Below are positions 1,077-60,827 of a stretch of DNA of 64,000 bases, in pieces. How positions within the stretch are numbered: the stretch's first letter is position 1; every line of letters begins with the position of its first letter. Source of the stretch: Thioploca sp. (GTDB lineage Bacteria; Pseudomonadota; Gammaproteobacteria; Beggiatoales; Beggiatoaceae); the NCBI GenBank assembly GCA_012032555.1, contig JAAUSR010000001.1:1-64000 (forward strand), in the 5' to 3' direction. The position numbers and the translations under genes are program-made. The notes beneath the pieces were generated by a model that ran no database searches, was not told where the DNA came from, and saw nothing but the letters and a program-made list of their open reading frames with translations.

Positions 1077-2974
1077 TTACTTTTCAGTCATCGCCTCAAT
1101 CCCTTCCCAACTATCAGGAACATCGTGTTTTTGCCAATATTCACAACGTTGCAGATAAATTTGGGCCGCTTTATCACGATTATGAATGCGTAGAATTTCA
1201 TTAAAACAAAGCGTTGCTTCACGAAATTCTTGCTGGCGATAGTGGGTTAAGCCTTGCTCAAACCGGTTACGCGTTTGCATTTTGAGTTCAATGATATCGG
1301 GTGGATCATGATCAAAAACTTCATAAATCGTCACCGGTGTCGATTTTCCTTTGGCTTTCACGCGATCAATGATCCGAATGGCATATTGAGTGGTATCACC
1401 CAAACGTGAGTAAGTTGCTTCCGAAATTAATAATGCAGCCCCATATTTCTTCGACATACCTTCAATACGGGAAGCTAAATTAACGGCATCGGAAATAACT
1501 GTACTATCCATACGGTTTATACCACCGACCGTCCCTAACATCAAAGGTCCACTATTAAGACCAATCCCAATCCGAATCGGTTGATAACCGGCTCGGTGGC
1601 GTCCTTGATTGTATTCAACTAATTTCTTTAACATGGCAATAGAACCACGCACTGCATCATCGGCACTGGTTGGAAACAATGCCATAATTGCATCACCAAT
1701 ATATTTATCAATAAAACCGTGATGTTTACTAATGATAGGTTCCATTTTGCTTAAGTAAGAATTGATGAAATGAAAATTTTCCTGAGGGCTCATTTGTTCG
1801 GAAAGCGTTGTAAAGTCCCGTACATCAGAAAACAATACGGTCATTTCTTGAGCGACTTGATCGCCTAACTCGACCTCAATAATGCTATTTTTGTTTAAAA
1901 AACTTAAAAATTGTTGAGGAACAAAGCGTTCATAAGCTGCATTAAGTTCTTCTAATTCTTGGGTAAAACAAATGCGTTCTTCTTCTATCTGTTTGCGTTC
2001 AGTAATGTCATAAATTACTATAAGTAAGGCTTTTTCACCATTAAATACCATGGGTTGAATAAAGAGATTGACCCACATAGGCGTACCGTTGGCTTTATTT
2101 AATTGGACTTCGTAATGGCTTAGTTCTTGATTGCGCAGAAAGGTTCTTAATAATCTTTTCCAACCAGGATGTTCGGGGTAAAAATCCGTGATCAGGTGAC
2201 TCGTCAGCCGACTGATTGACAAACCAAACAGGAGGGTGGCTTGGGTATTAGCATATAAGATTGCACTATCAGCGGTATGAATAATGACTAAAGGTACCGG
2301 CGTAGTTTCAGCAATTACGCGAAACCGCTCTTCACTGGTTTGGAGTTCTTGAGTAAAACGAGCCCGCTCCTGCTCTGCCTGTTTACGTTCAGTGATATCT
2401 TGAAAAGCAGCAATCGCGTAAGTTAGGTTATTTTTTTCATCAAAAATTGGTGTTCCCCTCATTTCTATCGGAACGATTTTATTACTTTGATGAATTTCTA
2501 TATCATCAACACTGGAAATATTACCTTGCAATGCTTGAGTAAGCGGATTACGTTCGATGGGATATAGTTGCGTGCTTCTCGCTAGATAGAGTTGATATAT
2601 TGCTGAAAATTCTTGAATCGTAGCAGTGGGTACAATACTTTTACCAAAAATGTGCTGGGCTTTATGATTCGCATAATAAGGATGACCACTGGCATCAACA
2701 ACAAATACGCCAACTGGTATCGCTTCTAAAAATCGTGCTAACTTTTCTTCACTGGCGCGTGCCACTTTTTCAGTTTTATCGGATAACTGATTATGTTGTT
2801 TATCGCTAACTGTAACAAGGAATTTGGTTTGTTTAAGTAATTCTTTATAGGCTTTAAATAAAGATTTATATTCTTTAACAAGCGGTGTTTCTTGATCATT
2901 AAATTGTTCTAAAGTATTGGCGGCATTCTCTAGTACATTTTCTTCATTTTGGAACAGGGCTAATTTTTTTTCAT
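1077..2974 (-). CDS. PAS-PAS-class III nucleotide cyclase in the SiaD position (frameshift near start)
   Basis: Predicted soluble adenylate cyclase. Counted from the GTG at 2765: PAS domain ~7-127, second PAS ~145-255, class III catalytic domain ~285-480, helical TPR-like tail to 562. Both metal aspartates are visible (FSDVRDF and GDAIMALF). The base-selecting residues are Lys (FIDKYIGD) and Thr (STVISDAVN), the class IIIb pattern, which favours ATP; several class IIIb enzymes respond to bicarbonate. The frame stays open upstream of the GTG to a stop at 2991-2993 and encodes a helical stretch reading PLVKEYKSLFKAYKELLKQT, of the kind found ahead of the GGDEF domain in SiaD-type proteins. An ATG at 2974 followed by eight A would be in frame with nine, so I infer a one-base loss at 2964-2971. 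Last gene of a siaABC-like cluster. Confidence 0.85.
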
Positions 2975-2996
2975 AAAATGATAATTTTGATTATTG

Positions 2997-3097
2997 TCAG
3001 AAGCAGAATCTTTAGTAAAGAATTCACAGAATGAACGATCGAGTTAAACTTCAACTGAATTCTGATAATTCTTCAATTCTGAAAATTCTGCTTCTGA
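2997..3097. repeat. 13-bp perfect inverted repeat flanking a 75-bp spacer
   Basis: TCAGAAGCAGAAT at 2997-3009 is the exact reverse complement of ATTCTGCTTCTGA at 3085-3097. It fills the gap between siaC and the cyclase gene. The spacer holds further AATTCTGA-type motifs, so the whole intergenic RNA could fold. It could act as a processing or attenuation structure setting the siaC to cyclase ratio, or be a decayed small mobile element. Confidence 0.55.
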
Positions 3098-3098
3098 T

Positions 3099-3482
3099 TT
3101 ATTTGGGAACTAAATGAAAAGGTAAGTGTTCCAAGTCTTCCTGAAACTCTTCTCCATATTCTTGAGCGTATTCGTTATCGCTGTCATAAATCCAATTAAT
3201 AATGATATTTTTATTATCGTTAGCTACGGCTTCTTCTAGTTGATCGAACAGATCCAGTAACATTTTAGAAGAACTGCTATTAAAGTAATTGAGTTCAATA
3301 TTGATAGTTAAAGTTGGTTCATTAGGTTGTTCTAAGTATTGTTCCAACCAAGAGAAGATAGGTTCAGAAAATTCAGTAATATTTTCTGGATACATTTCAC
3401 CTTTAAATACGAGTAATTGATTCTCTTTATCAAAATAAATCGTTGGAGTTTGTTTAGTGGCTTCGATTTGCCAACTTTCCAT
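3099..3482 (-). CDS. siaC: SiaC-family regulatory phosphoprotein (DUF1987)
   Basis: A 127-aa protein matching the SiaC/DUF1987 family: beta strands followed by the central motif IELNYFNSSSSKMLLDLFDQ and an acidic C-terminal part. In Pseudomonas, SiaC is a partner-switch protein, phosphorylated by the kinase SiaB, dephosphorylated by the PP2C phosphatase SiaA, and in the unphosphorylated state it binds and activates the diguanylate cyclase SiaD. The phosphorylation site of the family lies in the SSSS-type loop seen here around residue 70; here the candidates are all serines. It starts 11 bp after siaB ends and reads toward the PAS-cyclase, so it is the likely protein signal that controls that cyclase. 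Family call is by motif and by neighbours. Confidence 0.85.
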   Translation of the reverse strand: MESWQIEATKQTPTIYFDKENQLLVFKGEMYPENITEFSEPIFSWLEQYLEQPNEPTLTINIELNYFNSSSSKMLLDLFDQLEEAVANDNKNIIINWIYDSDNEYAQEYGEEFQEDLEHLPFHLVPK

Positions 3483-3493
3483 AACTGATCCCT

Positions 3494-4051
3494 TTAAATA
3501 AACGTTCTCAGTGAGAAAAATGCTAAATGTTCATCAACGGGTTGAAATTCGAATTCAATCGGTTGGGTGGTTTTTCTTGCCAATTCGATAAAACCTAAAC
3601 CAGCACCTTTACTGTTACTATTTTCATTAGTTTCTCTTTTACGCTGTTCTTTGTAGTAACGTTTGAGTTCCTCTTTATCCATATTTTTTAAGGTTATTAA
3701 CCGGTTCTGGAGATCATCAACTAGGTTACTGTTAATCAAATTACCGCACATAACATAATATTTTTCATTTTCACAACCAATGACAATAACGCCATGACTT
3801 AATTCTACTGAGTCTGGTTGAGTCGTTGAGAGCCGATCAGCAGAATAATGAATGACATTCTGAACCTGCTCTACGAACAGGGAAAAAACTTTAAGCACTT
3901 TGGCAGAGTTAGTTTCTTCTAGTTTCATCCGATTTCTTAAAGTATGACCTATTTCCACAAATAACTCTTGGGAAAGTGGGCCACTGAAACCAAAAAAAAT
4001 GTGTTGTGCATCTAGTTCTTTTTTAAATTTATAGAGATGTTTGAGCTTCAT
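3494..4051 (-). CDS. siaB: SiaB-family protein kinase
   Basis: Matches the SiaB family (DUF6272), small GHKL-like kinases that phosphorylate SiaC. Visible parts: N-terminal FGFSGPLSQELF, a helix with VFSLFVEQVQNVIHYSA resembling the N-box region, and a glycine-rich SKGAGLGFIELARKT near the C-terminus corresponding to an ATP-lid/G-box. I chose the ATG at 4051 (185 aa) because AAGGAAG lies 5 nt upstream; an upstream ATG at 4096 would give 200 aa but its AGAAGG is only one base from the start codon. Follows the 9-bp tandem repeats and the VapBC pair; overlaps nothing and is followed closely by siaC. Confidence 0.8.
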   Translation of the reverse strand: MKLKHLYKFKKELDAQHIFFGFSGPLSQELFVEIGHTLRNRMKLEETNSAKVLKVFSLFVEQVQNVIHYSADRLSTTQPDSVELSHGVIVIGCENEKYYVMCGNLINSNLVDDLQNRLITLKNMDKEELKRYYKEQRKRETNENSNSKGAGLGFIELARKTTQPIEFEFQPVDEHLAFFSLRTFI

Positions 4052-4102
4052 CTGTACTTCCTTAGAGTCGATAACTAAATTCAATTCAACCGACATACCT
4101 TC

Positions 4103-4155
4103 TATTATCCATATTATCCATATTATCCATATTATCCATATTATCCATATTATCT
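4103..4155 (-). repeat. 9-bp tandem repeat, five full copies plus a partial, ahead of siaB
   Basis: The unit TATTATCCA repeats five times without change at 4103-4147, with a partial copy to 4155. On the coding (minus) strand it reads ATGGATAAT repeatedly, giving an open frame of Met-Asp-Asn repeats that ends in a TGA overlapping the 5' end of the siaB frame (ATG 4096). Copy number can change by slippage without altering that frame, but would alter spacing between promoter and siaB. Confidence 0.9.
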
Positions 4156-4212
4156 GTAGTACTCAATCGTAAGTAGTGAAGCACCAATCAACTAGTATTT
4201 GGAATCCGTAAC

Positions 4213-4255
4213 AATCCCCCCTAACCTCCTTTTCAAAGGGGGGTTAGGGGGGATT
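4213..4255. repeat. Near-perfect hairpin of C-run/G-run type (dispersed repeat)
   Basis: AATCCCCCCTAACC (4213-4226) pairs with GGTTAGGGGGGATT at 4242-4255, with a TTTTCAAA loop region between. Hairpins of this composition are widespread dispersed repeats in cyanobacteria and large sulfur bacteria. It sits between vapC and siaB and could act as a transcription barrier between the toxin-antitoxin pair and siaB. Confidence 0.7.
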
Positions 4256-4336
4256 TAAGAATTTAAAATACCGCAAAACTCATGCTTTAGTACTTAGATG
4301 GTGGACAACAACAAAAACCTGCTAACATGACTTGAT

Positions 4337-4741
4337 TCACTTTGTCAGCAACACAATTTTTTGAGGAATGGCGAGTTTTTCAACGTTTTTTATTATCCTT
4401 TTATCAAACGTTGCAAAACCTTCCGTATCAAAACTACCGACAATATGCAGTGCATCAGCGAAGTCCATTCCAGCTTCATACCATTCTAAGGCTAGCGCGA
4501 CTTTGGTGACATCATCTACTACTATATTTGATAAACCTAAAATATGCCTAACTCGCTTAACAATGACTTCCCTTGGTAAAGCATAACCGCTAGAAGAACC
4601 CAAAACCCAAATCAATTCAAGTAAAACATTTGGTAAAACCAAACACTGATGTTGAGCAAGAAAATCTGTTGCCACTGCTGTTTGTACGGGCTCATCTTTG
4701 ATCGCATAACGCACCAGAATATTGGTATCTACTGTGATCAT
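4337..4741 (-). CDS. vapC: VapC-like PIN-domain toxin
   Basis: A 134-aa PIN-domain ribonuclease of the VapC type. The acidic metal-binding residues are in place: Asp5 in VDTNILVRY, a Glu in LLELIWVL, Asp in MDFADALH, and Asp in FATFDKRI. VapC toxins cleave tRNA or rRNA and are held inactive by a cognate antitoxin. The start codon overlaps the antitoxin stop by 4 bp (ATGA-type overlap), the normal antitoxin-first order. The pair lies between the siaA-like and siaB genes on the same strand, which is unusual and may reflect insertion into that operon. Confidence 0.9.
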   Translation of the reverse strand: MITVDTNILVRYAIKDEPVQTAVATDFLAQHQCLVLPNVLLELIWVLGSSSGYALPREVIVKRVRHILGLSNIVVDDVTKVALALEWYEAGMDFADALHIVGSFDTEGFATFDKRIIKNVEKLAIPQKIVLLTK

Positions 4742-4992
4742 TTTTGTTTGCCTGCCTCTACACTAATTGCTACATCCATCTCTTCAATACTAAGTGATTT
4801 ACCTTGGTAAATAGACAGTGGCATATCGGGTGGTTCCAGTTGTGAAACGGGAAACACGGGTACTGGTCTAATAAAAACTCCTTTTGCCGTATGTTGCAGC
4901 ATGAGTTCCATACCTTGATGCCATTGTAATGCGTTTAGAAGCTGAGTTGGCAACCTTATTTGTCCTCTCTCTTCAAGCACTATTTTTTCCAT
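4738..4992 (-). CDS. vapB: AbrB/MazE-type antitoxin of the VapC pair
   Basis: An 84-aa protein with an N-terminal SpoVT/AbrB swapped-hairpin DNA-binding domain (residues 1-45; LEERGQIRLPTQLLNAL) and a C-terminal tail rich in Pro and acidic residues that would wrap the toxin. Such antitoxins neutralise VapC and repress their own operon. Translationally coupled to vapC by a 4-bp overlap. Confidence 0.85.
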   Translation of the reverse strand: MEKIVLEERGQIRLPTQLLNALQWHQGMELMLQHTAKGVFIRPVPVFPVSQLEPPDMPLSIYQGKSLSIEEMDVAISVEAGKQK

Positions 4993-5198
4993 AACGATAT
5001 CCTTACGAATTATTCAATTAAACTATCACTATCTAGGTTGGTAGCTTATTAATATACTGAGAATTACCACCAAGATTCAATTTGTACCCCAGCATTCCAA
5101 TGTTGAGGATGAATCAATTGTCCAATCACGTTAACCTTCTTAGCTTGATTACTTTTAGTAGGCGCAATTTATTCATCTCTACTATTTAGGTTAACCAA

Positions 5199-7091
5199 TT
5201 AGACTTTAAATCCCAAAACAGTCACATCATCCAACCGGTCATAATTATTTTTATAATCATTAAATGCCTCAAGTAACTTATTTCCTTGTTCACTTAAAGG
5301 AAAATGATAATTTTCTAAGAGTAGATTTTTAAAACGCTTATTACCCAAGGAGAAACCTTTTTCTCCACCAACTTGATCAATAAAATCATCTGTTGATAAA
5401 TAAAAATACATGTCTGGTTCAATTTTGATAGTATGGGTCGTAAAAGTAAAATTGAGGTCCGATTTTTTATAACTTAAACTTTGTTTATCCCCTTTAATCA
5501 TGTGAACTTCATTTTGATGAATGTAATACAGCGGCAATTTTGCCCCGGCAAACAGTAGGCTTTGTTCTGATAGATTGACCCAACACAACGCCATATCTAA
5601 ACCATCATCAGAAGTGACATACTCGGTATCTTGTTGCAATGACGTTTTGACCATGGTGTTTAACTGTTTCAAAATCTCACTGGGCTGGTAACAACTTTCA
5701 TCTCGGGTAATTCTTCTTAACGCCGTTGAAACTACCATGGTCATAAATGCACCCGGAACTCCATGACCCGTACAGTCTATCGCAGCAACTATAAAACTAT
5801 CCGCAAAAGCTTCCGCATAGATCATATCGCCACCTACAAGATCTTTGGGTAACCAAAGGAAAAAATGATTGGGTAAAGTGGTTACTTGCGTTGGATTAGG
5901 CAATAAAGAATTCTGGATACTTTGTGCGTATCTGAGACTTGCCATAAACATTTGGTTAACGGCTTCAGCTGCTTCCTGTGCTCTTTCCGCTTGTTCGCGT
6001 TGGAGACGCTCGGTGATGTCTTGGAATGCACTAATGGCATAAGTAATCTGACGCTGCTCGTCAAAAATAGGAGCACCCCACACTTCTAAGGGAATAATTC
6101 GATTATCCTGATGGACTTCTATATCATCAACACGGGTACTTTGTCCTTGTAATGCTTGTATGATAGGTAACTGAGTCTTGGAATAGATTTTTTCAGTATC
6201 TTTTTGATATAAATTATAAAATTCTGGTAATTGTTCCGCACAGATGTCTTGTCCCAGACTTCTACCAGAAATGTGTTGGGCTTGTTGGTTAGTAAAATAA
6301 GGTTTGCCTCTAGCATCAAAGACATTAACACCTATTGGTAGTGCTTCTAAAATTTGTCTTAATCTATTCTCATTTTCTTGGATCATTTGTTTGTCTTCAA
6401 TCAAAGAGAGACGCATGTTATTAATCGATTTGGTAACGTGTTCTAGTTCATCATCATTTATGGGTGTTTTTCGGTTAAGGATTAAAGCGGTATGCAAGTT
6501 ATCTAAGTTTAAGTTGCGGGTATAAGCGGCTAATTGACTCAAATGTTTCGTAATTAAGTATTGAACAATAAATAAGATAAACAGTGAGACTATAAATGTT
6601 TTAATCGCTTGGCTGATGAGTATGATTAAGGTTTTATCAATTAAACGTTGATATACTCTCTTTAAGTTGGCAACTACCTTTAGTACCCCTAAATAATATT
6701 CTTCTCCATCCTTAGTGTAGGACATTGGTATAGAATGACTAATGATAGCTGTATGTGCAGGCATTTGACCTGCTGTATAATTTTTATCCAGATCAGAATG
6801 TTTGATCTCCAAATATTCTATATCCGGCAACTGTAGAATTCCTTGTAGTTGTAAGTTAATTGCCTCGGAATCGATAGACCACAAACTATTCATTATGCTA
6901 GCTAAATAACTCGTTTTAATTTGAGTCATTTGCTTTTCAATAACTGAAATATCATGCCAATAATCCAAATAAAGCTGGAATACCGTCGCTAATAAGGTAA
7001 TAGCTGAACTACATAGTAAAATATAAAAAAGAAGATGATGGACTAACGGATGTTCACGCCTAATTTTTGCCAATTTAGATAATAAATTCAC
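5199..7091 (-). CDS. siaA: SiaA-like membrane sensor phosphatase: sensor-HAMP-PAS-PP2C (SpoIIE)
   Basis: A 630-aa membrane protein. Transmembrane segment at ~20-42, periplasmic sensor region to ~155, second segment ~158-182, HAMP ~185-235, PAS ~243-362 ending in DITERLQREQ, then a SpoIIE/PP2C phosphatase domain ~375-630. Metal-binding motifs of the phosphatase are visible: LVGGDMIYAEAF, AIDCTGHGVPGAFMT and LSTDDFIDQVGG. In the SiaABCD pathway the PP2C enzyme SiaA dephosphorylates SiaC. The protein differs from Pseudomonas SiaA in carrying a PAS domain, which is visibly related to the first PAS domain of the cyclase at the other end of the cluster. The periplasmic part may respond to the substrate-binding protein encoded just upstream. 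Confidence 0.85.
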   Translation of the reverse strand: MNLLSKLAKIRREHPLVHHLLFYILLCSSAITLLATVFQLYLDYWHDISVIEKQMTQIKTSYLASIMNSLWSIDSEAINLQLQGILQLPDIEYLEIKHSDLDKNYTAGQMPAHTAIISHSIPMSYTKDGEEYYLGVLKVVANLKRVYQRLIDKTLIILISQAIKTFIVSLFILFIVQYLITKHLSQLAAYTRNLNLDNLHTALILNRKTPINDDELEHVTKSINNMRLSLIEDKQMIQENENRLRQILEALPIGVNVFDARGKPYFTNQQAQHISGRSLGQDICAEQLPEFYNLYQKDTEKIYSKTQLPIIQALQGQSTRVDDIEVHQDNRIIPLEVWGAPIFDEQRQITYAISAFQDITERLQREQAERAQEAAEAVNQMFMASLRYAQSIQNSLLPNPTQVTTLPNHFFLWLPKDLVGGDMIYAEAFADSFIVAAIDCTGHGVPGAFMTMVVSTALRRITRDESCYQPSEILKQLNTMVKTSLQQDTEYVTSDDGLDMALCWVNLSEQSLLFAGAKLPLYYIHQNEVHMIKGDKQSLSYKKSDLNFTFTTHTIKIEPDMYFYLSTDDFIDQVGGEKGFSLGNKRFKNLLLENYHFPLSEQGNKLLEAFNDYKNNYDRLDDVTVLGFKV

Positions 7092-7195
7092 TGTAAATTA
7101 TTTGGGATTTGGATATCATTTTAATGAATGTGGATTGTTCCCATGACGTTAGGATTTACACAGTTGGATGAGCGCTCAATAAAATTGATATTGCC

Positions 7196-8314
7196 CTAAT
7201 TTCGGTGATTCAATTTACCCGATTTGGTGCAGGTATCGTAATTTTCTGGCGTACAATAGGTCAGGGGAGTGTAAATAATTTCTTGGTATTCTTTACCAGT
7301 TACGATTTTATATAAGGTAAAAATAGCTTGTCTTCCCATCTCATATGGCATTTGGCCAATGTTGATATCAGATAGATGTTCTTTTAAAAGTGCTAATTGA
7401 GCTTCAGTTGTATCAGCACTAATGATAACAATTTCTTTTTGTGCTATTTTTTCTTTGACGGGAGAAATCAGTTGACGGTATTTTTCTGGAGCGATTTGTT
7501 GAACCCCAACAAGAACAGAAACAAATGTATCAACCTCCTGTTGAGGTCTGGATAAGATAAAGTTCATTTGCTCAATGGCTCGGTCAATTTGCGTAAGACT
7601 ATAAAGAGGACACCTTGCAATTTCTGTCCATCCATTGATGTTTTTGAGTTTTTCACCTGGTGGCACGTTATAGATTTTACCCGATAGTACGGTTCGCACG
7701 CCCATCAATCGTAGATTCAAATTGAATGAGTTTTTATAACCCATTTGAATACAAAGCTTGTCACCATTAGGACGTCGTTTTTTTATCTCTTTCCCAAGTG
7801 CTTTGCCGAATTCAAAATTATCAGTGCCAATATAAGCCAACCGTAAATTTGGATCATTTTTCAAAGTAATAAAATCAAGATCAGAATCAAAAGTGATAAC
7901 GGGAATTCCAGCTTCTTTGGCTTTTTGTAAACTATTTTTAGCCAAATATTCAGACTGTACAATGGCTACAGCAATACCATCCACACCTTCATCGACGATA
8001 AGCTGTTCTAAAATTTTATTTTGTTCTCTAACGTCAAATGCTTCAGGCGAACCACGAAAAATGCACTTGACTCCACCAATTTTAATAGCAGCATCCTGAC
8101 AACCTTTTAGACTTTCAAGAAAAAATGGATGCGTCATAATCTTTGGAACAAGGGCAAATTTCAGTTCATCTGCGTTAACCGAATGAAATAGAGTCAAGAT
8201 AAATATTAGAACTAGGTTACGCACAATTATTGGACTATTGAAAAACAAAAAATTTAAAATCTGGTGAGACTTTTGGAGCTTTGCCAGTATGAAATTAAAT
8301 TGTACAAAAACCAA
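7196..8314 (-). CDS. Periplasmic sugar-binding-type (TorT-like) substrate-binding protein
   Basis: A 372-aa exported protein of the type I periplasmic-binding fold (Peripla_BP_4), close in style to TorT and ribose-binding proteins. The mature part starts near DELKFALVPKIMTHPFF after a hydrophobic segment (VLIFILTLFHSVNA). Characteristic stretches are VDGIAVAIVQ, AGIPVITFDSDL and IGTDNFEFG. No ABC transporter genes accompany it. TorT-type proteins act as ligand-dependent partners of membrane sensors, and the next gene, 104 bp downstream, is the SiaA-like sensor phosphatase; I infer that this protein gives that phosphatase its ligand input. The N-terminal ~30 residues before the signal region look extra, so an internal start is possible. 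Confidence 0.8.
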   Translation of the reverse strand: MVFVQFNFILAKLQKSHQILNFLFFNSPIIVRNLVLIFILTLFHSVNADELKFALVPKIMTHPFFLESLKGCQDAAIKIGGVKCIFRGSPEAFDVREQNKILEQLIVDEGVDGIAVAIVQSEYLAKNSLQKAKEAGIPVITFDSDLDFITLKNDPNLRLAYIGTDNFEFGKALGKEIKKRRPNGDKLCIQMGYKNSFNLNLRLMGVRTVLSGKIYNVPPGEKLKNINGWTEIARCPLYSLTQIDRAIEQMNFILSRPQQEVDTFVSVLVGVQQIAPEKYRQLISPVKEKIAQKEIVIISADTTEAQLALLKEHLSDINIGQMPYEMGRQAIFTLYKIVTGKEYQEIIYTPLTYCTPENYDTCTKSGKLNHRN

Positions 8315-52408: not shown

Positions 52409-55400
52409 ATGTTGCTCAAATTAATAAACCATCTCGTTTCTAGAATTTCTGGCAAAGCTCATATTCGAGTGATCCTTATTGTCCCGTTTATGTTCCAAAT
52501 TATTATAGCGGTTGGACTAACCGGCTATTTTTCCTTTCGGAATGGACAAGAAGCGATCAATGATTTAGTTACTCAGTTGCATACAGAAATCAATGCCCGG
52601 ATTGAACAATATATCAATTCCTACCTAGAAATTCCTTCTTTGGTGGTAAATATTAATGCCAATGCTATTCGTAATAATCAGCTAGATTTGAATCAGTTAC
52701 GGAGTTGGTTACCACACTTAATTAAACAAAGTCAAGTATTTAGTTCTTTAAGTTATATTTATTTTGGCAATGAACAAGGTAACTATATTGCATTACAACG
52801 ACTAGACGGTAGTGGTTTAGCTTATAATTTGAAAGATAATAATACCGGTGGTTTCATGCAAGACTATCACCTTGATGAGGAAGGTTATTCTATCGATTTA
52901 CACAATCCTCAACAATATGATCCACGGTTACGCCCTTGGTATCAGTCAGCTGTTCAAGCCGTCGACCAGTTTGGACTGAAATTTACCAATTTATCGGTTC
53001 TAAAGGGACAGAGCAATTAGGAATGAGTTTTGTTTATCCTTATTTCGATGAAAATGGGGTGTTACAAGGCGTATTAGGCTCAGATTTTACTTTATCCAAG
53101 ATTAGCGAATTTTTACGGAGCGTTAAAATCGGTAAAACTGGAAAAACTTTTATTGTCGAACGTTCTGGTTTATTGGTCGGTGGTTCCTTTCCTTATCCGT
53201 CTTTTGATGAAAATAAACGCCGCTTAAAAGCATTTGATGTGGATGATCGTTTGATTCAAGCCACAGCAAAATACCTAGTTGATTATTATGGTAATTTTAC
53301 TCAAATTACGCAAACAAGGGAATTACGTTTTGCAGCGAATGGTGAACGACAACGTGTTCGGGTTTCTCCATTTAAAAACAAATTTAATCTGGATTGGCTG
53401 ATTATTGTGGTGGTTCCAGAAGCAGATTTCATGGAACAAATCAATATTAATACCCGCACCACCTTAATACTGACTTTAATTGCCTTAGTTCTAGCTACTT
53501 TAATTGGTGTCTTTACTTCTAAATGGATTGTCAGTCCTATTTTACGCCTTAATGATGCCGCTAAGAAGTTAGCTAATGGTGACTGGGACCAAATTTTACC
53601 AGTAGGACGTGCTGATGAATTAGGTGAATTAGCTAATTCATTCAATAGTATGGCCAAACAGTTAAAAGCGTCTTTTCAGACTTTAGAGACCAAAAATCAA
53701 GATTTACAACGCTTAGATCAATTAAAAAATGAATTCCTAGCGAATACTTCTCATGAATTACGAACTCCACTCAATGGGATTATTGGTATTGCTGATTCTC
53801 TGTTAGATGGTGCTACCGGGCCATTACCAGAGCAAACTCGAGCTAATTTAGCCATGATTGTGGTTAGTGGTCGGCGTTTAGCTAATTTAGTGAATAATAT
53901 TCTCGACTTTTCTAAGCTGCGACATAAAAATATTGAACTGCAACTCAAGTCAGTAAGTATGCGAGAAATTGTTGAAGTCGTCTTTACCTTGAGTCGACCT
54001 CTATTGGGCAAAAAAAATTTACAATTTATTAATGCGATTTCTTCCGATTTACCGCCAGCTTATGCGGATGAAAACCGGTTACAACAAATTTTACACAACT
54101 TAGTGAGTAATGCGATTAAGTTCACAGATAGCGGTTCGATAGAAATAGCGGCTGAAGTCCAAGAAAATTTTTTAGCTATCCAGGTGATTGATACCGGTAT
54201 TGGCATCGCCGAAAATAAAATCGGGAGTATTTTTGAATCTTTTGAACAAGGAGATGGCTCAACAGCTCGGCTCTATGGAGGTACCGGTTTAGGATTAGCG
54301 GTAACTAAACAACTGGTTGAGTTACACGGTGGGCAAATTACGGTTCAGTCTACTTTAGGCCAAGGCTCTAGCTTTACTTTCACTTTACCAACGGCCTCCC
54401 AAGCAGTAGAGAGTCTCTCCTTAGATGAATTTACACCGAGTCGAGAATCTTTAGTGATTCAAAGTTTATCCGCACAGATCTATCCAGATATCACCATTAC
54501 TCCACCGATTCCTTCTAAACAACATGGCTATTTCAAAATTTTGATCGTTGATGATGAGCCGGTTAATTTGCAAGTACTTATTAATCACTTATCATTACAT
54601 AATTATTCAATTACTCAAGCCATGAATGGGTTAGAAGCCTTAGCCATTGTAGAAAAAGGTTACCAGCCGGACTTAGTCTTGTTGGATGTCATGATGCCGA
54701 AAATGACTGGATATGAGGTTTGTCAAAAATTACGAGAAAAATTTCCGATTAATGAATTACCGATTTTAATGTTAACGGCTAAAAATCAAGTTTCTGATTT
54801 AGTTGAAGGATTAGATGCGGGCGCCAATGATTATTTAACCAAACCGGTTTCCAAAAGTGAGTTGATGGCTAGAATCAAAATGCATTTGGAATTATCGAAA
54901 ATTAACATTGCTTATGGTCGTTTTGTCCCACGACAATTTTTACAATTTTTAAATAAGGAAAGTATTGTCGAAGTACAATTAGGTGACCAGGTACAAAAAG
55001 AGATGTCAATTTTGTTTTCTGACATTCGTTCTTTTACGACCTTATCGGAACGCATGACTCCGGAAGACAATTTCCGCTTTATTAATACTTATCTTAGTTG
55101 CATGGAACCCATTATCATTGAACATACTGGATTCATTGACAAATATATTGGTGATGCCATTATGGCTTTGTTTAGCGGTAGTGCTGATGATGCAGTCAAA
55201 GCGGGTATTGATATGTTATGCCAATTAAAAAAGTATAATGAACACCGTGAATTGGTTGGTTATGTTCCGGTTCAAATTGGCATTGGGATTAATACCGGTT
55301 TATTAATGTTAGGTACCGTGGGTGGACAGAAACGAATGGATAGTACAGTTATTAGTGATGCCGTTAATTTAGCTTCACGAATGGAAGGTTTAACTAAAAA

Positions 55401-55737
55401 TTATGGTATACCTTTACTGATTAGTCATCAAACTTATTTAGGATTACTCAACCCCAATGCCTACGCTATCAGGCGAATTGATCAAGTCCAAGTTAAAGGT
55501 AAATCAGAATTAGTAACCGTTTATGAAGTTTTTGAGGCGGATGATCCCGATAGCAAGGCTGCTAAGTTAGCTACTTTAGGACCTTTTATCGAGGCATTAT
55601 CACTTTATGAGGCTAAAGATTTTCTGCCAGCTGCGCAACTCTTTGAAGCTTGTCTGCAACGCAATCCCGCTGATAGTGTCGCTCAAATTTATTTAGAACG
55701 TTGTCGTCTCAATCAGGATTGGAAACCCTTTATTTAG
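52409..55737 (+). CDS. Cache-HAMP-histidine kinase-REC-class III cyclase hybrid (one-base frameshift)
   Basis: About 1110 aa if read through. Transmembrane helix ~23-45; large periplasmic dCache domain (~48-340); second helix ~345-367 (TLIALVLATLIGVF); HAMP; HisKA with NTSHELRTPLNGIIGIAD (phospho-His); HATPase with DENRLQQILHNLVSNAIKF, DTGIGIAE and GGTGLGLAV; REC (IVDDEPVN, LVLLDVMMPKMTG, LTKPVSK); then a class IIIb cyclase (ILFSDIRSF, DKYIGDAIMALF, Lys and Thr base-selecting residues) and a TPR-like tail. Frame 1 ends at 53020, frame 2 opens at 52936; the join lies near 52957-52962, where one extra base gives RPVWTEIYQFIGSKG. The cyclase-plus-tail half is a close paralogue of the SiaD-position cyclase at 1077. 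Confidence 0.9.
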
Positions 55738-59080: not shown

Positions 59081-60827
59081 TCATTTTCTGTCATTAAGTA
59101 AATAAGTGACCATACTGCCTTTACCTTTGATTTCAATTGCTCCACGTTGTTCAAACACAAATTTATTTTTAAGACGTTGGTAAGTTGCTTCAGAAACTTG
59201 GATACGTCCGGACAGACCGCGTGATTCCATCCGACTAGCAATGTTGACGGTATCTCCCCATAAATCATAATTAAATTTATTTTTCCCGATGATCCCAGCG
59301 ATGACTGGACCGGTATGAAACCCAATTCGAATCTGAAAATGAGCCTGGACTTCTTGGTTGATTTTATTAATAGTGGTTAACATTTCTAATGCCATATTGG
59401 CAACCGCTTCCACATGATCAGGGCGTGGGGTTGGTAAACCACCTACTAACATATAAGCATCACCAATCGTTTTAATTTTTTCTAATTGGTGTTTTTCAGT
59501 TAATTTATCAAAAGCGAGAAAAATTTGGTTTAATTTCTCTACTAATTTACAGGGTTCAATCGTCGTTGATAATTCAGTGAATCCAACCAAATCAGAAAAT
59601 AATACGGTGACTTCAGGAAAACTATCAGCGATAGTCTGTTCGCCTTTTTTTAACCGATCAGCAATCGGTTTAGGTAGGATATTAAGAAGTAGTTTTTCTG
59701 ATTTTTGTTGTTCTATTTTCAATTTCTTTTGTTCTATCCGCAATTTCTTTTGCTCACTTTGTAATTTAAGCATAAAAGCACGTTCTCGATCTCGAAACCG
59801 TTTTCGTTCCAATGAAGCAGAAATTTTGGCATTTAAAATGACTTGGTTAAAAGGTTTTTGTAAATAATCCTCTGCGCCCATTTCAATACAGCGTACTACG
59901 CTATCAATCTCATCTAATGCGGAAATCATAATAACTGGAATCGGGTTCAGTTCCTTATCAGCTTTGATGGTTTCTAGTACCTGATAACCGTTCATTTCTG
60001 GCATGATTAAATCTAATAAGATTAAATCAAATTTTGATGACGAATCATTTGTAGTGCTTGTCGTCCATTTTCAGCAACTTCAACGTGAAATCCTTGCCGA
60101 TCCAAACGTCGTGACAGTAAATCACGGTTACTTTCACCATCATCAACAACTAGTAACGAGGCACTATGTAAGGAAAGATCCGAATCATTTGGAGTGAAAG
60201 GGTGATGATTTGTCCATGATGAGTCTGAAGGTGTTAAAGTTAAATCTGGAGGAAGTGATTCAGTGGCACGCCAAGTACGCACCACCTCATCCATTAAAGT
60301 TGTTGTAGAGACGATTGGTTCTGGTTCCAGCTCGTTTTTTTTTTGGGCAACAATTCTGACTTAGAATAATAGGATAGATCACCAATTAAAGTCAGTAATC
60401 GCCGTGCTGTGGTAAGAATTTTTTGCAGTTCAGTTTGCGCTTGGTGGTGAGTCTCTTTATCAACGTCCTCTAATAGCATCTCACCATAGCCAATAATCGC
60501 ATTAATAGGTGTACGTAAATTATGACGAATGGTGGAAGTAAAAGCTTCCCGGTCAATTTCGCCATGGGGAGAATGTTTCTCAGAAAATAACTGGGTAATT
60601 AAAGTTAATAACTGCTCCCCGGCCACTAACATTTTGTTCAGATCTGGAATAAAATCATGGTAAGTCATTTCTTGATCAGCGTACTTTAATAGTTTCTCAA
60701 TATGAGCACCAATCGCATTGGTGAGCGTGATCAAATCCTGTTTTATCTCCACCAGTTCAACGTCGTAACGAATACTTTTCTCCACGCCGGAAGATGAACT
60801 TGAACCGCCAGTTCCTACAACACCCAT
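59081..60827 (-). CDS. HisKA-REC-adenylate cyclase protein (two one-base frameshifts)
   Basis: Three overlapping or adjoining frames form one protein of about 580 aa. Frame 1 (60827-60294): a Ser/Gly-rich start and a HisKA dimerisation domain with TIRHNLRTPINAIIGYGEML, but no ATPase domain. Frame 2 (60294-60022) and frame 3 (60004-59081): a REC domain split at the phospho-Asp (LLVVDDGESNRDLL ... LILLDLIMPEMNG), a coiled coil rich in Gln/Lys, then a class IIIa cyclase (VLFSDLVGFTELST, Lys in KIKTIGDAYM, Asp in YDLWGDTVNIASRME), consistent with ATP as substrate. Breaks are at the ten-T run 60336-60345 and the four-T run 60032-60035. It follows a stand-alone receiver gene by 27 bp. Confidence 0.8.

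What the first reader, a model, noticed from the sequence alone, without database searches (positions are those of the whole stretch)
1077..8314. SiaABC partner-switch cluster whose output enzyme is a class III (cAMP-type) cyclase instead of a diguanylate cyclase
Seen: the gene order is periplasmic binding protein, sensor-HAMP-PAS-PP2C phosphatase, SiaB kinase, SiaC, PAS-PAS-class III cyclase, all on one strand. Known: in Pseudomonas, SiaA (PP2C) and SiaB (kinase) set the phosphorylation state of SiaC, which activates the GGDEF enzyme SiaD. Inference: here the same switch controls a class IIIb adenylate cyclase, so a c-di-GMP pathway has been rewired to cAMP. The upstream extension of the cyclase carries a helical stretch of the type that precedes GGDEF in SiaD proteins, which could be the SiaC docking site.
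Basis: partly seen in the sequence, partly recalled or inferred. Interest (0 to 1): 0.78.

Follow-up and report, generated by a model that had tools for sequence, protein, structure and literature searches.

The report
SiaC switch wired to adenylate cyclase
In a sulfur bacterium of the Beggiatoa family, a protein switch known for controlling the biofilm messenger c-di-GMP sits in front of a predicted cAMP-making enzyme that carries the same docking helix, and a survey shows that this switch and helix are re-used with at least five kinds of output enzyme.

Summary
On the minus strand lie a periplasmic binding protein, a CHASE5-PAS-PP2C phosphatase (SiaA-like), SiaB, SiaC and a PAS-PAS-class III cyclase with intact adenylate-cyclase residues (K/T, two metal Asp, Asn, Arg). 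The cyclase extension carries the SiaC-docking helix of SiaD: E = 1e-23 to a profile from SiaC-neighbour effectors, with S82 and D83 of the Pseudomonas contact surface kept and Q86 replaced by His. The profile was found in only 1 of 18 cyclases of this genome. Across 397 genomes of the phylum, helix and SiaC co-occur (49 both, 3 helix only, 10 SiaC only, 335 neither). SiaC plus helix-cyclase recurs in Beggiatoaceae, Gallionella, Desulfobacterota, Campylobacterota and Acidobacteriota bins. The same helix heads GGDEF, HisKA-HATPase, HD-GYP and PP2C proteins, so SiaC looks like a general adaptor. "c-di-GMP rewired to cAMP" is too narrow: the window's nearest SiaC relatives drive cyclases or histidine kinases. 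Weak points: the homologous start ATG is one base out of frame (A8 run), a docking model was inconclusive, nothing is biochemically shown. No SiaC-adenylate cyclase report was found in the open-licence literature held. New variant of a known kind.

The parts
7196..8314 (-). periplasmic solute-binding protein, Peripla_BP_4 (candidate ligand sensor)
   Evidence: Pfam 159 bits. Other SiaC loci have SBP_bac_3 proteins in the same place upstream of the PP2C gene: L025, L151, L168
5199..7091 (-). siaA-like sensor phosphatase: CHASE5 - membrane - PAS - PP2C/SpoIIE
   Evidence: Pfam CHASE5, PAS, SpoIIE; GGD, DCTGHG, DQ and DD metal-site motifs read in the sequence
4738..4992 (-). AbrB-like small ORF (probable antitoxin), not part of the switch; intrudes between siaA and siaB
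   Evidence: 84 aa ORF, overlaps the start of the PIN gene; no Pfam match at E<=0.001, AbrB-like by eye only
4337..4741 (-). PIN-domain protein (probable VapC-type toxin), not part of the switch
   Evidence: Pfam PIN 33.7 bits
3494..4096 (-). siaB kinase (DUF6272)
   Evidence: Pfam 153.7 bits; phmmer E 2e-26 to 6kko_A (P. aeruginosa SiaB) with the N-box Glu/Asn and the GAGLG box aligned
3099..3482 (-). siaC phosphoprotein
   Evidence: Pfam 145 bits; phmmer E 8.5e-18 to 6kko/6kkp/7e6g; model of SiaC matches 7e6g_D, Z 20.5, rmsd 1.3 A over 125
3276..3278 (-). SiaC Ser69 codon, aligned to phospho-acceptor T68 of P. aeruginosa SiaC (N-S-S for N67-T68-S69)
   Evidence: alignments
2972..2974 (-). 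ATG homologous to the start in relatives, one base out of frame with the cyclase because of an A8 run (2964-2971)
   Evidence: window ATG-A8-TTA against L041 ATG-A9-CCG; L026 and L024 start at the same distance from the LF..EE motif
2757..2960 (-). N-terminal helical extension with the SiaC-docking (stalk) module LFxxEE...YKxLLKQxKxLVxxSDKQ
   Evidence: profile A4, E 1.0e-23 in a whole-genome search; earlier profile whose seed excluded the window, E 4e-11
2007..2729 (-). two PAS domains between docking helix and cyclase
   Evidence: Pfam PAS_4 / PAS
1329..1856 (-). class III cyclase catalytic domain with K (DKYIGD) and T (STVISD), two metal Asp, Asn and Arg: predicted class IIIb adenylate cyclase
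   Evidence: Pfam 75 bits, genome search, closest solved domain CyaB 3r5g E 1e-27, motifs
1077..2963 (-). whole cyclase reading frame after the A8 run (ends at 1077)

Best explanation
This is a SiaABC-type partner switch whose output enzyme is a class IIIb adenylate cyclase. Most likely working: a periplasmic ligand, perhaps presented by the binding protein, is sensed by the CHASE5 phosphatase, which removes phosphate from SiaC Ser69. Unphosphorylated SiaC binds the N-terminal docking helix of the cyclase dimer, as it binds the stalk of SiaD, and holds the coiled coil in the form that lets the two catalytic domains pair, raising cAMP. SiaB phosphorylates Ser69 and ends the signal. The two PAS domains between helix and catalytic domain could add a second input. 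More generally, SiaC is an adaptor and the helix is a portable docking tag that has been joined to several kinds of output enzyme. Shown here: gene content, domain identity, catalytic and docking residues, co-occurrence, recurrence, exchange of outputs. Inferred: ligand sensing, phosphorylation, physical docking, sign (activation) and ATP as substrate.
For: Domains. Docking helix: the Pseudomonas SiaD contacts S82, D83 and Q86 for the SiaC phospho-site loop are published (eLife 2021, PMC8457831). In 93 SiaC-linked effectors position 83 is D in 93, position 82 S in 76, position 86 Q in 66 and E in 23, across cyclase, GGDEF, HATPase, HD and PP2C classes. Specificity: the helix was found in 1 of 18 cyclases of this genome; genome co-occurrence with SiaC is 49 both, 10 SiaC only, 3 helix only, 335 neither, Fisher p 8e-49. 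Recurrence: about 20 further SiaC loci with a helix-bearing cyclase, one of them a cyclase-GGDEF protein. On the SiaC tree the cyclase label needs 14 changes against other outputs, at least 7 forced by well-supported branches. Helix identity follows SiaC identity even between loci with different outputs (r 0.47; largest of 2000 permutations 0.13). In a family relative without SiaC (G011) a SiaB remnant with a stop still lies directly upstream of an intact helix-cyclase. The genome has 10 cNMP-binding domain matches, so cAMP receptors are plausible.
Against: The start codon of the cyclase is out of frame by one base in this assembly, so the helix may be poorly or not translated here (sequencing error, slippage, -1 frameshift or real loss cannot be told apart). 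The window has His where Q/E is usual at position 86 and Phe/Thr at 77/80. SiaD has two SiaC motifs, the cyclase one. The SiaC-helix fusion model gave pTM 0.55, about what two unplaced domains would give by my estimate. Within Beggiatoaceae and class relatives co-occurrence of helix and SiaC is looser (10/4/6/38). Covariation between SiaC and helix could be shared ancestry: too few independent pairs to test. A PIN/AbrB-like pair interrupts the operon.
Confidence: 0.72

Rival explanations
1. The cluster is a degenerate remnant: the cyclase has lost its helix to the one-base deletion at the start and now runs without SiaC control from the internal GTG at 2765; SiaABC is idle or serves another target.
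For: No in-frame ATG/GTG/TTG before 2765; homologous start is ATG-A8 instead of A9; PIN/AbrB-like insertion between siaA and siaB; a relative (G011) has visibly lost SiaB/SiaC while keeping the cyclase.
Against: The helix frame is open and strongly conserved (E 1e-23), not drifting. A AAA AAA is a known type of slippery run, and only three A8 runs occur on the plus strand of the 64 kb. siaB and siaC are intact.
Confidence: 0.2
2. The helix is a general dimerisation/coiled-coil linker shared by signalling proteins; its link to SiaC is only neighbourhood, and SiaC here acts on another partner.
For: Structure test inconclusive. Among the close relatives six genomes have the helix without a SiaC match.
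Against: Phylum-wide, 49 of 52 helix-bearing genomes have SiaC, and the three exceptions are weak (E>1e-5) matches. 17 other cyclases of this genome gave no match. The best-conserved positions are those that contact SiaC in 7e6g. One SiaC-less case retains a SiaB remnant.
Confidence: 0.1
3. SiaC docks on the cyclase but inhibits it, so that SiaB kinase activates and SiaA phosphatase shuts off cAMP.
For: The sign cannot be read from sequence. In the window, two PAS domains separate the helix from the catalytic domain, unlike SiaD.
Against: In SiaD unphosphorylated SiaC activates (PMC8457831). Short cyclases such as L092, L116 and L155 have the helix directly before the catalytic domain, as SiaD does.
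Confidence: 0.12

Closest known systems
SiaABCD of Pseudomonas aeruginosa (SiaC-SiaD complex 7e6g)
   Same: PP2C sensor phosphatase, SiaB kinase, SiaC with N-[TS]-S site, effector with SiaC-contact motif in an N-terminal helix; even the siaC-effector gap with a first-called GTG start that cuts the helix off
   Different: Effector is PAS-PAS-class III cyclase, not GGDEF; one docking motif, not two; two PAS domains between helix and catalytic domain; Ser instead of Thr; a separate periplasmic binding protein; PIN/AbrB-like insertion
STAS-type partner switches acting on second-messenger enzymes (HsbA-HsbD; BgrV-BgrR)
   Same: STAS-fold protein under kinase/phosphatase control docks on a second-messenger enzyme
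   Different: There the target is a diguanylate cyclase and the adaptor is a STAS-domain protein outside the SiaC family (named in PMC8457831); here the adaptor is SiaC and the target a cAMP-type cyclase
Predicted PP2C / STAS-kinase / STAS pathways in Campylobacterota (PMC9239204)
   Same: Same kinds of component found as gene clusters, predicted to act on other signalling systems
   Different: Outputs named there are c-di-GMP enzymes or a chemoreceptor; adenylate cyclases are described there in a different cluster with CHASE2; no docking motif in the parts read
Class IIIb adenylate cyclases (CyaB 3r5g, photoactivated cyclases 5x4t/5m27)
   Same: Catalytic domain and substrate residues
   Different: Presumed control by a SiaC-docking helix, in addition to PAS domains

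Membership tests
SiaABCD system | SiaC-family regulatory phosphoprotein (PF09345) with N-[TS]-S site | tested here: met
   145 bits; N68-S69-S70 aligned to N67-T68-S69; fold Z 20.5 to 7e6g_D
SiaABCD system | SiaB kinase (DUF6272) with GHKL boxes | tested here: met
   153.7 bits; aligned to 6kko_A, E 2e-26
SiaABCD system | Membrane sensor with cytoplasmic PP2C phosphatase (SiaA) | tested here: met
   CHASE5 + PAS + SpoIIE
SiaABCD system | Output enzyme is a GGDEF diguanylate cyclase (SiaD) | tested here: not met
   Effector has PF00211 and PAS only, no GGDEF
SiaABCD system | Effector carries the SiaC-contact motif (S82-D83-x-x-Q86) in an N-terminal helix | tested here: met
   Profile E 1e-23; S and D kept, H at 86; one motif found where SiaD has two
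SiaABCD system | Physical SiaC-effector complex | tested here: inconclusive
   AlphaFold of SiaC read through into the helix: pLDDT 86, pTM 0.55; coordinates not available for contact counting
SiaABCD system | Phosphorylation of SiaC by SiaB, dephosphorylation by SiaA | not testable with these tools
   needs biochemistry
Class III adenylate cyclase (IIIb) | PF00211 domain with two metal Asp, transition-state Asn/Arg and K/T substrate pair | tested here: met
   motifs LFSDVRDF, DKYIGDAI, STVISDAVNLASR
Class III adenylate cyclase (IIIb) | Makes cAMP from ATP | not testable with these tools
   needs assay

The most novel reading that the evidence does not exclude
SiaC is a general adaptor of bacterial signalling: one portable docking helix, swapped repeatedly between adenylate-type cyclases, diguanylate cyclases, histidine kinases, HD-GYP proteins and PP2C phosphatases, puts any of these dimeric enzymes under Ser/Thr partner-switch control.
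Probability: 0.7. Interest if true: 0.75.

Novelty: new variant of a known kind. Interest (0 to 1): 0.63.

Why it matters
In the papers found here SiaC is studied only as an activator of one diguanylate cyclase; the authors suggested in general terms that it may modulate adjacent proteins (PMC8457831). The helix profile turns that into a specific, testable rule: any enzyme with the helix should be a SiaC client. It links Ser/Thr partner switching to cAMP signalling, which was not found in the open-licence literature held here, and it offers a natural set of clients for comparing how one adaptor acts on unlike dimeric enzymes. Outside the library searched (subscription journals, preprints) an earlier report cannot be excluded.

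Tried and rejected
AlphaFold docking test: siaC and the cyclase extension are in one frame 36 codons apart, so a read-through translation (stops as G/S/A) was folded with 50 further aligned rows. SiaC and helix are each confident, but pTM 0.55 does not show placement. Covariation: the top pairs out of 6976 fall on SiaC 71 and helix 85/74/86, at or next to the published interface, but with only 1-3 independent pairs on the tree it cannot be separated from shared ancestry; not counted as evidence. The fold search tested mainly residues 5-137 of the fusion; the helix has no fold result of its own. The reading 'helix always means SiaC' was weakened among close relatives, where six genomes have the helix without a SiaC match; for one of them (G011) a SiaB remnant explains it, and for the others no SiaC gene was seen beside the helix gene. 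Literature searches for SiaC/DUF1987 with adenylate cyclase or partner switching returned no such system.

Full report
What is there. The finding's genes are confirmed on the minus strand: Peripla_BP_4 binding protein (7196-8314), CHASE5-PAS-PP2C phosphatase (5199-7091), SiaB/DUF6272 (3494-4096), SiaC (3099-3482) and a PAS-PAS-class III cyclase (stop-to-stop 1077-2990). SiaC occurs once in the 5.55 Mb genome. Named relatives of this SiaC are Parabeggiatoa, Thioploca, Thiomargarita and Halobeggiatoa, and loci of the 'same family' genomes are identical to some of these contigs (for example G033:C8 and L131 give the same cluster), so the organism belongs to the Beggiatoa family.

Quality of the parts. 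SiaB and SiaC align to the solved P. aeruginosa proteins, and the modelled SiaC superposes on SiaC of the SiaC-SiaD complex 7e6g (Z 20.5, 1.3 A over 125). The site N67-T68-S69 reads N-S-S here. The cyclase has both metal aspartates, the Lys/Thr substrate pair of class IIIb adenylate cyclases, and the Asn/Arg pair (assignment of these positions is from general knowledge of class III cyclases); the closest solved domain is CyaB. cAMP as product is inferred from these residues.

The docking helix. In SiaD, SiaC grips an N-terminal stalk helix, with SiaD S82 and Q86 bonded to SiaC T68, and D83 to neighbouring residues (PMC8457831; SiaD sequence). The cyclase extension contains YKELLKQTKFLVTVSDKQHNQL, which aligns to that motif. 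A profile made from SiaC-neighbour effectors (A4, which includes the window row) finds it at E 1e-23; an earlier profile whose seed excluded the window finds it at 4e-11. Across 93 SiaC-linked effectors, D83 is invariant, S82 is S in 76, and position 86 is Q or E in 89. The window has S, D and H.

Specificity. About eighteen class III cyclase genes were found in this genome and the helix profile matched only this one (1.5 kb flanks, so the far N-termini of some very long proteins were not seen). A whole-genome search with the helix profile likewise found this one place only. In 397 genomes of the phylum, 49 have both SiaC and helix, 10 SiaC only, 3 helix only (all weak), 335 neither. Among the 58 closest genomes the link is looser: 10, 4, 6, 38. 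One of those six helix-only genomes, G011, keeps a SiaB remnant with a stop directly upstream of its helix-cyclase and has lost SiaC, as expected if the helix came from a SiaC system.

Breadth. Of 150 distinct SiaC loci, a helix-bearing output gene was found nearby in 93: 26 GGDEF, 25 HATPase (histidine-kinase type), 20 HD, 19 class III cyclase, 2 PP2C and one protein with both a cyclase and a GGDEF domain (L178). Pfam confirms HisKA-HATPase, hybrid kinases, HD_5 with or without GAF, and HATPase-CheX architectures. SiaC-cyclase pairs occur in Beggiatoaceae, Gallionella, Desulfonema and other Desulfobacterales, a Campylobacterota bin and an Acidobacteriota bin (metagenome bins can be contaminated). 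The 80 named loci were chosen for likeness to the window's SiaC, so these are not frequencies.

History. On the SiaC tree, the cyclase label needs 14 changes against other outputs, at least 7 forced by well-supported branches, so outputs have been exchanged many times; 124 columns leave many forks open. The window's SiaC sits in a supported Beggiatoaceae clade whose members with a known output drive cyclases or helix-bearing histidine kinases, so there is no evidence that this particular system was once a c-di-GMP pathway. L025, from a family relative, is different: its SiaC lies in the clade of SiaD-linked SiaCs and is followed by a helix-cyclase, the best single case for a diguanylate-to-adenylate cyclase exchange. 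Helix identity follows SiaC identity even across different outputs (r 0.47; permutation maximum 0.13), consistent with helix and SiaC being inherited as a pair.

Mechanism and doubts. The proposed action is that of SiaD: phosphatase on, SiaC dephosphorylated, SiaC binds the helix, dimer held in the active form, cAMP up; SiaB reverses it. Phosphorylation, binding, sign and substrate are inferred. Solute-binding proteins of another family stand upstream of the phosphatase in other SiaC loci (L025, L151, L168), which makes the binding protein a plausible input. Three doubts remain. First, the homologous start codon is one base out of frame (ATG-A8 against ATG-A9 in L041); the helix frame itself is open and conserved. 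A sequencing error, transcriptional slippage, a -1 ribosomal shift on A AAA AAA and a real loss all fit. Second, the docking model was inconclusive; a monomer fusion cannot show a site formed by two helices. Third, the window carries one docking motif and two PAS domains between it and the catalytic domain, whereas SiaD has two motifs and a direct junction; other helix-cyclases (L092, L116, L155) have the direct junction.

Novelty. No paper in the open-licence library reports SiaC with an adenylate cyclase. The closest are the SiaD structure paper, which suggests that SiaC-family proteins modulate adjacent proteins, and a Campylobacterota survey that predicts PP2C/kinase/STAS switches on c-di-GMP enzymes and a chemoreceptor (PMC9239204). 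Filed as a new variant of a known kind.

Noticed in passing
window 4337-4992 (-): PIN-domain gene with an overlapping AbrB-like small ORF, VapBC-like, between siaA and siaB of the switch operon.
   Followed up: partly
window 2964-2974 (-): ATG followed by A8, one base short of the in-frame start seen in relatives; candidate homopolymer error, slippage site or real frameshift.
   Followed up: partly
window 4103-4154: Perfect 9-base tandem repeat (TATTATCCA, 5.8 copies) immediately upstream of the siaB start, a possible variable-spacing element.
   Followed up: no
window 2997-3022 and 3072-3097: 26-base inverted repeat filling the siaC-cyclase gap (13 bases at its ends perfect); no other copy of those ends in the window.
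   Followed up: no
window 4213-4255: Near-perfect palindrome with 21-base arms between the PIN gene and siaB.
   Followed up: no
L178 7428-8972 (+): One protein with docking helix, class III cyclase domain and GGDEF domain downstream of SiaC (Desulfobacterales HSG16): a possible joint cAMP/c-di-GMP output.
   Followed up: partly
L291 6066-8153 (-) and just upstream: Genome without SiaC keeps an intact helix-cyclase with a SiaB remnant directly upstream: decay of the switch with survival of its client.
   Followed up: yes
L142, L146, L151, L152, L156, L165, L168: Recurrent cluster in Campylobacterota, Gammaproteobacteria and other bins: solute-binding protein (SBP_bac_3 by Pfam in L151 and L168), PP2C, SiaB, SiaC, helix-HATPase protein (with CheX domain in L142), two small ORFs, GGDEF protein.
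   Followed up: partly
window 54994-55521 (+) and 59093-59626 (-): Two further class III cyclase domains in the same window, without the docking helix.
   Followed up: no
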